From assembly GCA_902791035.1 (NCBI GenBank), contig CADAUA010000001.1:1-64000 (forward strand): 64,000 nt of DNA. Direction: 5' to 3'. Position 1 is the first letter of the stretch; each line of letters begins with the position of its first letter. The notes under the pieces are model-generated. The model ran no database searches. It saw only the letters and a program-made list of their open reading frames with translations, and had not been told where the DNA came from. The position numbers and the translations under genes were made by a program. The stretch comes from an uncultured Coriobacteriaceae bacterium. Lineage in GTDB: Bacteria > Actinomycetota > Coriobacteriia > Coriobacteriales > Atopobiaceae. Positions 16,131-50,547 of this stretch are shown one piece after another.

Positions 16131-16271
16131 TGCACCCTAGCGAGGGCCCGGAGCGGCCGCCAGGCCTCGAAGGGCCGTTAGGGTGCAAAGAACTAGGGGT
16201 TTGGGCCGGTTGGCTGCACCCTACCGGCGGGTCATGACCGCCAGGACAGCCCGGGAGGGCAGTAGGGTGCG
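16131..16271. repeat. Tandem pair of 57-bp palindromic elements, 84-bp period
   Basis: Elements at 16131-16187 and 16215-16271 both start TGCACCCTA and end TAGGGTGC plus one base. Both are 57 bp, with starts 84 bp apart. Interiors are GC-rich and differ. A second pair with the same termini and the same 84-bp period is at 50407. The rest of 15889-16130 is the upstream region of GH3 copy 2. Confidence 0.9.
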
Positions 16272-16549: not shown

Positions 16550-18589
16550 CTAGACCCCGCTCGTATCCCTGGCGGCCTCGGTGTCCTCGGTCGTCGCGGC
16601 CTTCTCGCCGGCCCTCTGGGCCACCTCGCGGCCCTCCTGGTCCCAGGCGCGCAGGGCCTGCCACACGGCCTCGGCCACGGCACGGGGCACCCCCGGCACC
16701 GCGGCTATCTGGTCCACGCTGGCGGCGCGCAGCCGCTTCATGGAGCCGAACTGCCTCATTATGGCCTTGCGGCGCTTGGGGCCCACGCCCTCCACCTCGT
16801 CGAGCACGGAGACTGTCATGGCCTTGTCGCGAAGCTCGCGGTGGAAGGTGATGGCAAAGCGGTGGGACTCGTCGCGCACCTGCTTGATGAGGTAGAGCGA
16901 GGCCGAGCCGGAGGGCAGGACCACCGGGGTCTCGTCCCAGGGGACGAAGACCTCCTCGTCGGACTTGGCCAGGCCGCATACCGGGATGTCCAGCCCCAGG
17001 GCCGCAAGCTGCTCCATGGCGGCCGTGAGCTGGGGCTTGCCTCCGTCCACCACCAGGAGGTCCGGCCGCGAGCCAAAGCGCCCGTCCGCCATGCGCTCGG
17101 GAGAGTAGCGGCGCCCCAGAACCTCGCTCATGCTCACGAAGTCATTGGCCTCGTCGAGCTGGGCCCGCACCTTGAAGCGCCGGTACTGGCCCTTGTCGGG
17201 CCGGCCGTTGGTGAAGACCACCATGGAGGCCACCGTGAAGTGCCCATGCAGGGTGGACACGTCGAAGCACTCTATGCGCATGGGCGGCGCGTCCAGCGCC
17301 AGGGCGCTCTCCAGCTGCAGGAGGGCCTGGTTGGTGCGGTCGTCGGCATAGCCCGTGCGCACCATGTAGCGCATGAGGGCGTGACGGGCGTTCTGTGAGG
17401 CCATGTCGAGCAGGTGCTTGCGCTCGCCGCGCTGGGGCCGGTGGATCCGGCAGACGCGCCCGCGCTTCTCGGCCAGCCACTCCCCCACCACGTCGGCATC
17501 GGCCAGGTCCACCGGGAGCTCCACCTCGGCCGGGATGTCGGCCGTCTCGTCGTAGTAGCGCTTGACGAAGCCGGACACGAGCTCCTCCTCGCCCACGTCC
17601 AGGCCCTTGTCGAGGATGAACTCCACCGAACGCACCGTGCGGCCCTCGCGCACCACGAAGACGCAGGCCGCGCTTATGGTCTCCTCGCGGTAGAAGCCGA
17701 TAAGGTCCGCGTTCACCGAGCTCGGGAACATGACCTCCTGGCGCTCGCCTATGGCGTCGATGGCAGCCAGGCGCTGCTTGATGCGGGCGGCCTTCTCGAA
17801 CTCCAAGTCCGCCGCGGCCTCGCGCATCTGGTCCTCGAGCTCGCCCACGATCTCGGACCGCTTGCCCTCCAGGAACCGCTCCACCTGGCGGACGTTCCTG
17901 GCGTACTCCACCGTGTCACAGGCGCCCACGCACACGCCGGGCCCACGGCCCACGTGGTAGTCGAAGCAGGGCCGGCCGTGCTCGGCCTGCAGGAGGTTGG
18001 CCACGGCAGCCTCGTCTGGGTGGCGGTCCATCTCGCGCCGGACGCGCTTCCACTCCGCGCAGGTGCCGATGCACATGGGCACGACCTTGCGCAGGGTGTC
18101 TATGGTCTCCCGGGCGGCGCGGGCGTCGGTGTAGGGGCCGAAGTAGCGGGTGCCCTTCTTGTGCTTCTCACGCGTGTACTTGATGGCGGGGAAGACGTCG
18201 GACTCCGTGACGGCTATGTAGGGATAGGACTTGTCGTCCTTGAAGTCCACGTTGAAGTAGGGGTGGTACTGGGCTATGAGGTTGCGCTCGAGGACAAGGG
18301 CCTCGTGCTCGGAGCCCACCACGATGTAGTCGAAGCTCTGGGCCACCTGCATCATGAGGGGGATCTTTGCCCGGTCGTCCTGGAGGGTCACGTACTGGCG
18401 CAGGCGCGCGCGCAGGTTCTTGGCCTTGCCCACGTAGACGACCTCGCCCTTGCCGTCCTTCCAGAGGTAGCAGCCGGGGTCGAGCGGGACCTTGTCTACC
18501 TGGGAGCGCAGGTAGGCGAGGTGGGCCTCGTCGGGGATGCCGCCAAGGCCCTGCATGTCGGGTACGTATCCGGCGTCGCGGGTGGTCAC
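16550..18589 (-). CDS. uvrC: UvrABC system protein C
   Basis: A 679-residue nucleotide excision repair endonuclease that makes the incisions on both sides of a lesion bound by UvrB. N-terminal GIY-YIG domain (PGCYLWKDGKGEVVYVGKAK region), UVR motif near 215-250, a central RNase H-like UvrC domain with IECFDVSTLHG and LLVVDGGKPQL, and a C-terminal helix-hairpin-helix pair (VEGVGPKRRKAIMRQFGS, AAVPGVPRAVAE). The start overlaps the stop of the ATP-grasp gene (ATGA). Confidence 0.97.
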   Translation of the reverse strand: MTTRDAGYVPDMQGLGGIPDEAHLAYLRSQVDKVPLDPGCYLWKDGKGEVVYVGKAKNLRARLRQYVTLQDDRAKIPLMMQVAQSFDYIVVGSEHEALVLERNLIAQYHPYFNVDFKDDKSYPYIAVTESDVFPAIKYTREKHKKGTRYFGPYTDARAARETIDTLRKVVPMCIGTCAEWKRVRREMDRHPDEAAVANLLQAEHGRPCFDYHVGRGPGVCVGACDTVEYARNVRQVERFLEGKRSEIVGELEDQMREAAADLEFEKAARIKQRLAAIDAIGERQEVMFPSSVNADLIGFYREETISAACVFVVREGRTVRSVEFILDKGLDVGEEELVSGFVKRYYDETADIPAEVELPVDLADADVVGEWLAEKRGRVCRIHRPQRGERKHLLDMASQNARHALMRYMVRTGYADDRTNQALLQLESALALDAPPMRIECFDVSTLHGHFTVASMVVFTNGRPDKGQYRRFKVRAQLDEANDFVSMSEVLGRRYSPERMADGRFGSRPDLLVVDGGKPQLTAAMEQLAALGLDIPVCGLAKSDEEVFVPWDETPVVLPSGSASLYLIKQVRDESHRFAITFHRELRDKAMTVSVLDEVEGVGPKRRKAIMRQFGSMKRLRAASVDQIAAVPGVPRAVAEAVWQALRAWDQEGREVAQRAGEKAATTEDTEAARDTSGV

Positions 18590-50284: not shown

Positions 50285-50379
50285 CGAAATAACGGACACA
50301 AGTTGACAGGGGGCCTTGCCAATCCTGCGGTTTTGTCGCGAGGAAGGGCCCCTTGGCACGACATCTGTCCGTTATTTCG
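50285..50379. repeat. 95-bp inverted-repeat element
   Basis: Perfect 14-bp arms CGAAATAACGGACA / TGTCCGTTATTTCG. The interior includes GGGGGCCTTGCC and AAGGGCCCCTTGG, which also pair in part. It lies 100 bp past the flavoprotein stop, preceded by a simple CGCTCGCGCC-rich run (50190-50280). Confidence 0.9.
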
Positions 50380-50406: not shown

Positions 50407-50547
50407 TGCACCCTATCGGCAGCGCGAGCCGCCCCGACCTCGAAAGCACACCGGTAGGGGTGCGCTCACGGTGGGTTTTGCCGGGTTTCTTGCACCCCAA
50501 CACAGATTTCCGCCACCGGCAGTCTGCTCGAGACACAGAAAGGTGCA
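50407..50547. repeat. Second tandem pair of TGCACC palindromic elements, 84-bp period
   Basis: Elements at 50407-50464 (TGCACCCTA ... TAGGGGTGCG) and 50491-50547 (TGCACC ... GGTGCA). Starts are 84 bp apart, the same period and termini as the pair at 16131. They lie in the 500-bp gap before the degraded oxidoreductase; 50548-50687 shows nothing further. Confidence 0.85.

What the first reader, a model, noticed from the sequence alone, without database searches (positions are those of the whole stretch)
16131..16271. Two loci 34 kb apart carry the same paired 57-bp hairpin element with an 84-bp period
Elements at 16131/16215 and at 50407/50491 share termini TGCACC(CTA)...(TAG)GGTGCA, sizes of 57-58 bp, and exactly 84 bp between starts, yet their interiors differ. 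A conserved pair-with-spacing architecture is what bacterial BIMEs (REP doublets) look like. A mobile or RNA-level function is plausible.
Basis: partly seen in the sequence, partly recalled or inferred. Interest (0 to 1): 0.65.

Follow-up and report, generated by a model that had tools for sequence, protein, structure and literature searches.

The report
Phased intergenic inverted-repeat arrays, not hairpins
The paired 57-bp elements are real and belong to a family of about 74 intergenic copies in this one bacterial genome; their two ends behave like separate protein-binding sites held a fixed number of DNA turns apart rather than like the two sides of a hairpin, so they look like docking or wrapping sites for an unidentified DNA-binding protein.

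Summary
Both window loci carry two elements with TGCACC…GGTGCA ends, 84 bp apart. Genome-wide I catalogued 74 elements in 33 intergenic arrays of 1-4 units (modal period 83-84 bp), plus 4 in one relative from another genus. Lengths are quantised: elements 57/58 or 67/68 bp (one of 80), linkers 26/27 or 37/38 bp, with nothing between, so allowed changes are about one helical turn. Interiors in the main class are nearly unrelated in sequence. The two arms vary independently (145 pairings, 143 expected) and interiors fold no better than shuffles, which argues against an RNA or single-strand hairpin. A+T content oscillates with a ~10.5-bp period in step with the element centres. Five IS200-like (RAYT-like) transposases exist, but none is flanked by this repeat, and GTAG/CGTC tags are absent: BIME-like in layout, not a REP/REPIN by those criteria. 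Best reading: helically phased duplex-DNA sites for a wrapping or bridging protein, still unknown. Gyrase is one candidate, but a scan for the phage Mu strong gyrase site was negative. Two further fixed-length families with a shared core occur in the same genome.

The parts
16131..16187 (.). Element 1a, 57 bp, TGCACCCTA...TAGGGTGCA
16188..16214 (.). 27-bp linker with A/T-rich centre (GGGGTTTGGG)
16215..16271 (.). Element 1b, 57 bp, TGCACCCTA...TAGGGTGCG
50407..50464 (.). Element 2a, 58 bp, TGCACCCTA...TAGGGGTGCG
50465..50490 (.). 26-bp linker CTCACGGTGGGTTTTGCCGGGTTTCT with A/T-rich centre
50491..50547 (.). Element 2b, 57 bp, degenerate copy TGCACCCCA...AAAGGTGCA
50288..50376 (.). Neighbouring copy of a second fixed-length inverted-repeat family (AATAACGGACA...TGTCCGTTATT, 89 bp, core ATCCTGCGGTTTTG at 50322-50335); possibly the same kind of element with different arms

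Best explanation
These are dispersed, BIME-like intergenic arrays that act as double-stranded DNA. Each element is a pair of facing half-sites (TGCACCCTANYGG or TGCACCCGSGATG) set a fixed number of helical turns apart, with a 26-27 bp linker (or one turn more) to the next pair, and with A/T-rich DNA at about every 10.5 bp in between. The likely mechanism is that a sequence-specific protein binds the half-sites and bends, wraps or bridges the DNA between them, forming a nucleoprotein particle of about 140 bp per pair; arrays grow by tandem duplication of whole units. Shown: the copies, the quantised spacing, the arm independence, the A/T phasing, the intergenic location. Inferred: the protein, the wrapping, and a role in chromosome topology or organisation. 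DNA gyrase is one candidate wrapper (my estimate about 0.2).
For: A chain scan allowing elements of 40-95 bp and linkers of 15-60 bp gave only 57 (31), 58 (14), 67 (5), 68 (15), 80 (1), and linkers 26 (22), 27 (16), 37 (1), 38 (4), plus three odd end-of-chain matches (17, 30, 53). Interiors of the CTA class are nearly unrelated between arrays (36.5% identity, shuffled 31.7%), so length is kept while sequence is not. Arms pair no better than if independent: CTA positions 8-13, 145 against 143.2; degenerate position 9 in the 58-bp class 2 of 11 against 5.5. Interior folding z averages 0.09 over 156 folds. A/T content is phase-coherent at 10-11 bp in CTA interiors (amplitude 66 against 14 shuffled, P<0.001) and linkers (162 against 14), with A/T peaks near 0, 10, 22, 31, 41, 53 and 62 bp from the linker centre. 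Nearly all half-sites lie in arrays. Arrays overlap no predicted gene and show no orientation preference: 19 tandem, 6 convergent, 6 divergent, 2 at edges.
Against: Positions 8, 12 and 13 of the CTA arms show a weak pairing excess (80 against 72.7, P=0.02), so some hairpin constraint is not excluded. Copies share ancestry: base identity within A/T-or-G/C matches is 0.559 against 0.500, so part of the phasing may be inherited. The one-turn steps rest on few independent events (three element classes and one linker step). No cognate protein was found. A scan of phage Mu with the phasing profile did not pick out its annotated strong gyrase site (41% of windows score as high).
Confidence: 0.5

Rival explanations
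1. Non-autonomous mobile elements (REPIN or MITE-like): the arms are transposase ends and copies spread through the genome.
For: Many dispersed intergenic copies in one species and almost none in relatives; six dispersed 58-bp-class doublets are clearly related to each other (between-array interior identity mean 0.54); RAYT-like genes present; REPINs also keep spacer length while spacer sequence varies (PMC3116915).
Against: No RAYT-like gene is flanked by TGCACCC; no widely spaced half-site pair that would mark an autonomous copy; no near-identical dispersed copies; REPINs show common compensatory changes (PMC3116915) and these do not.
Confidence: 0.25
2. Strong DNA gyrase (topoisomerase) sites, the counterpart of E. 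coli BIME-2. This is a special case of the best explanation.
For: A pair spans about 140 bp, symmetric, with a central linker and two flanks of ~10.5-bp A/T phasing; the E. coli gyrase motif is 130 bp, symmetric, with a central part and two flanks of 10.75-bp GC periodicity, and BIME-2 are preferred gyrase targets (PMC6379681); gyrases of three species, M. tuberculosis included, show 10-11 bp GC periodicity (PMC12324340).
Against: Gyrase alone would not explain the strictly conserved TGCACCC arms; classes with 68-bp elements or 38-bp linkers exceed its footprint; the Mu strong-site test was negative.
Confidence: 0.2
3. RNA or single-strand hairpins acting in transcripts (terminators, stabilisers, processing sites).
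For: Near-perfect 9-bp terminal arms, strongly folding as whole elements; weak pairing excess at three positions.
Against: Whole-arm covariation absent, interiors unstructured, 6 of 31 classifiable arrays lie between divergent genes where no gene ends, no Rfam match.
Confidence: 0.12
4. Operator arrays for local gene regulation.
For: Paired, phased half-sites resemble DNA-looping operators.
Against: 6 arrays lie between convergent genes; placement is indifferent to promoters; solitary half-sites are practically absent.
Confidence: 0.1

Closest known systems
BIME / BIME-2 (REP mosaics of enterobacteria)
   Same: Intergenic arrays of short inverted units in alternating orientation and regular spacing, grown by unit repetition.
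   Different: The repeated unit is not itself a hairpin; no GTAG-type tag; arms vary independently; spacing is quantised by about one helical turn.
REPIN (Pseudomonas fluorescens SBW25; PMC3116915)
   Same: Two inverted conserved ends around a variable spacer of constant length; doublets and ordered clusters; dispersed in extragenic DNA.
   Different: REPIN spacers form hairpins with compensatory changes and belong to a RAYT; neither was found here.
TIR repeats of TIRYT transposases (PMC3733652)
   Same: Genome-specific inverted-repeat families in dimers or clusters; the GGGGTC repeats flanking the L074 transposase gene here look like that type.
   Different: TGCACCC arrays flank no transposase gene.
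DNA gyrase binding motif and phage Mu strong gyrase site (PMC6379681)
   Same: About 130-140 bp, symmetric, ~10.5-bp A/T phasing.
   Different: Strictly conserved sequence-specific arms; Mu site not recovered by the profile.

Membership tests
REP/REPIN (RAYT-linked) | RAYT gene flanked by two copies in inverted orientation | tested here: not met
   Five Y1_Tnp genes (RAYT model NF047646 hit below its cut-off); their flanks hold other repeats, no TGCACCC pair
REP/REPIN (RAYT-linked) | GTAG/GTGG or CGTC tag at one end of the palindrome | tested here: not met
   The position that would make GTAG is variable: 36 of 78 CTA-class arms; absent in the other classes
REP/REPIN (RAYT-linked) | Hairpin with compensatory changes | tested here: not met
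   Arm positions 8-13: 145 pairings against 143 expected; weak excess at three positions, P=0.02
REP/REPIN (RAYT-linked) | Many copies, extragenic, dispersed | tested here: met
   74 elements in 33 arrays, none overlapping a predicted gene; copy number is modest
BIME | Regularly spaced units in alternating orientation | tested here: met
   Half-sites alternate with fixed spacings
BIME | Repeated unit is itself a REP | tested here: not met
   The half-site is a 9-13 bp word, not a palindrome; see REP rows
Strong gyrase site | About 130-bp symmetric ~10.75-bp GC periodicity | tested here: met
   shared ancestry of copies is a caveat
Strong gyrase site | Profile recovers a known strong site | tested here: not met
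   Mu cut site at 17879/17880: z 1.89; 41% of windows score as high
Strong gyrase site | Gyrase binding or cleavage in vivo | not testable with these tools
   Needs Topo-Seq or EMSA
CRISPR array | Identical repeats with unique spacers and cas genes | not tested
   The repeated part is a short half-site in alternating orientation with variable linkers, unlike a CRISPR repeat; cas genes were not searched for

The most novel reading that the evidence does not exclude
This lineage has several families of intergenic sites (TGCACCC, AATAACGGACA and TACTCGGGGTGG arms) with related A/T cores, each built to hold an unidentified protein complex at fixed helical phase: a BIME-like chromosome-organising system that works on duplex DNA and was not derived from RAYT hairpins.
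Probability: 0.25. Interest if true: 0.8.

Novelty: new variant of a known kind. Interest (0 to 1): 0.55.

Why it matters
Most dispersed bacterial palindromes are read as hairpins. Here length is conserved in steps of about one DNA turn while sequence drifts and arms do not covary, which is what protein bound to duplex DNA would leave. If confirmed, it would give a natural set of some 33 sites with which to identify a chromosome-organising protein, and a simple test (arm covariation plus spacing quantisation) for sorting other intergenic repeat families.

Tried and rejected
Rfam gave no match. Viral, plasmid and phage collections hold nothing similar. A scan of 84,980 species for the CTA element found one true hit, a contig filed as Lachnospiraceae hRUG884 (L053) that aligns at 99.5% over 3.1 kb with contig C5 of this genome, so probably the same species misbinned; four single hits (L052, L054-L056) look like chance. 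Family- and class-wide scans found one real relative, G066, and three look-alikes with other structure. RAYT linkage was rejected by reading the flanks of all five genes. Integron attC was considered and dropped: no RYYYAAC/GTTRRRY boxes or cassettes (by eye). An autonomous transposon with these ends is not in the assembly. The Mu strong gyrase site test was negative. The taxon was not determined.

Full report
OBSERVATION. The full 9-base arms on both sides occur only in the first; the fourth is degenerate. Both pairs have an 84-bp period, made of 57+27 bp and of 58+26 bp. The strict pattern is absent from 100 shuffles.

GENOME-WIDE. The genome (2.69 Mb, 37 contigs) holds many more. I catalogued 74 elements in 33 arrays: 20 pairs, 9 triplets, one quadruplet and 3 single elements. 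Three classes share the TGCACCC end: CTA (57/58 bp, TGCACCCTANYGG), G58 (58 bp, TGCACCCGSGA) and G68 (67/68 bp, once 80 bp, TGCACCCGSGATG). A chain scan that allowed any element of 40-95 bp and any linker of 15-60 bp returned (own genome plus G066) elements of 57 (31), 58 (14), 67 (5), 68 (15) and 80 (1) bp and linkers of 26 (22), 27 (16), 37 (1) and 38 (4) bp, with three odd end-of-chain matches. Nothing lies between the classes, and they differ by 10-11 bp, about one turn of B-DNA. All 37/38-bp linkers occur in G68 arrays and the steps may be few events, so the data are strong for conservation of length and suggestive for a one-turn rule.

DISTRIBUTION. In 140 genomes of the family and 398 of the class, the only other true case is G066, a genome of another genus, with two pairs (67-27-67 bp and about 67-27-68 bp) next to what looks from the translations like a pilin/sortase gene cluster. 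Public species genomes, viral contigs, plasmids and phages gave nothing else of substance.

PLACEMENT. No array overlaps a predicted gene, and flanking genes are tandem in 19, convergent in 6, divergent in 6 and undetermined in 2 (one assignment was corrected by hand because the home-made gene caller chose the wrong strand beside 16131). This speaks against both terminators and promoters. Neighbours of the window loci are a glycosyl hydrolase family 3 lipoprotein and UvrC at the first, and an FAD-dependent protein at the second ('lipoprotein' is my reading of its N terminus).

HAIRPIN TEST. If arms were stem halves, variable positions should covary. They do not: CTA positions 8-13 pair 145 times against 143.2 expected when arms are re-dealt between elements; G58, 41 against 45.9; G68, 121 against 117.3. 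Positions 8, 12 and 13 alone show a weak excess (P=0.02). Interiors fold like shuffled sequence (mean z 0.09). The element therefore behaves as two facing half-sites.

PHASING. CTA interiors share little sequence between arrays (36.5% against 31.7%), yet A/T content is coherent at 10-11 bp in both interiors and linkers. Around the linker centre of CTA pairs, A/T peaks lie near 0, 10, 22, 31, 41, 53 and 62 bp; G58 and G68 pairs show most of the same peaks. Centres of the 26/27-bp linkers are A/T rich, 99 of 152 bases against 45 expected. Caveat: base identity beyond the A/T-G/C pattern is also above chance (0.559 against 0.500), so common ancestry contributes.

REP AND RAYT. Five IS200-like Y1 transposases exist (above the Pfam cut-off, below the NCBIfam RAYT cut-off). 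L074 lies between GGGGTCGGAGCTCGTGTCACGC repeats in inverted orientation, L075 between TGTCACAGAAGTGTCAGTCACTTCTGTGACA-like palindromes, L076 between CACCTCGGTCCTGGCTGTCACG repeats, L073 between GTGTCAGGGGGAC repeats, and L077 near GGGGTACTCCCTT repeats. None carries TGCACCC pairs. RAYTs are reported to be always flanked by their REPs (PMC2817692), and REPINs to show compensatory changes (PMC3116915). So the elements are arranged like BIMEs or REPINs but fail their defining tests. They may still work like them at the level of chromosome organisation.

SECOND AND THIRD FAMILIES. A copy of another family, AATAACGGACA...TGTCCGTTATT, occupies 50288-50376 and ends 30 bp before locus 2. Eighteen copies were examined: lengths 87-89 bp (16) and 109 bp (2), arms not covarying, core ATCCTGCGGTTTTG. 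The same core lies at the centre of a third family with TACTCGGGGTGG arms and in the 38-bp linker of the TGCACCC array at C1:374320. Fixed length, inverted arms and an A/T core thus recur with different arms.

MECHANISM. I favour a protein complex on duplex DNA that recognises half-sites and bends or wraps the phased DNA between them. The match in length and periodicity to the E. coli gyrase motif (PMC6379681) makes gyrase a candidate, but the profile did not recover the annotated Mu strong gyrase site, and gyrase alone would not explain the strict arms. Shown: anatomy, copy number, spacing, arm independence, phasing. Inferred: protein, wrapping, role.

Noticed in passing
window 50288-50376; L109-L124: Second fixed-length family AATAACGGACA...TGTCCGTTATT (87-89 bp, two copies of 109 bp) with core ATCCTGCGGTTTTG; arms do not covary. 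The window copy ends 30 bp upstream of the TGCACCC array.
   Followed up: partly
L125 181-308, L126 181-305, L127 185-311, L129 191-319: Third family with arms like TACTCGGGGTGGCCGGAAATAATCATACACTTGG around the same core ATCCTGCGGTTTTG.
   Followed up: partly
L074 1119-1190 and 2267-2345; flanks of many arrays: Transposase-linked repeat GGGGTCGGAGCTCGTGTCACGC in inverted orientation on both sides of a RAYT-like gene; the same or related motifs lie within 150 bp of 14 of 33 TGCACCC arrays.
   Followed up: partly
C3:153495-153714 (L081): Two identical 68-bp elements separated by a stretch that reads partly as N (withheld or masked).
   Followed up: no
L053 (OMUP01000089.1): Contig filed as uncultured Lachnospiraceae hRUG884 aligns at 99.5% over 3.1 kb with contig C5 of this genome; probably misbinned.
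   Followed up: partly
L102 149-8138 (G066 C18): Apparent pilin and sortase genes directly upstream of the two G066 arrays (read from the translations, not tested).
   Followed up: no
L025, G039:C1:1396092-1396340: Unrelated tandem repeat with TGCACC and a 52-53 bp period (about five turns) in a relative.
   Followed up: no
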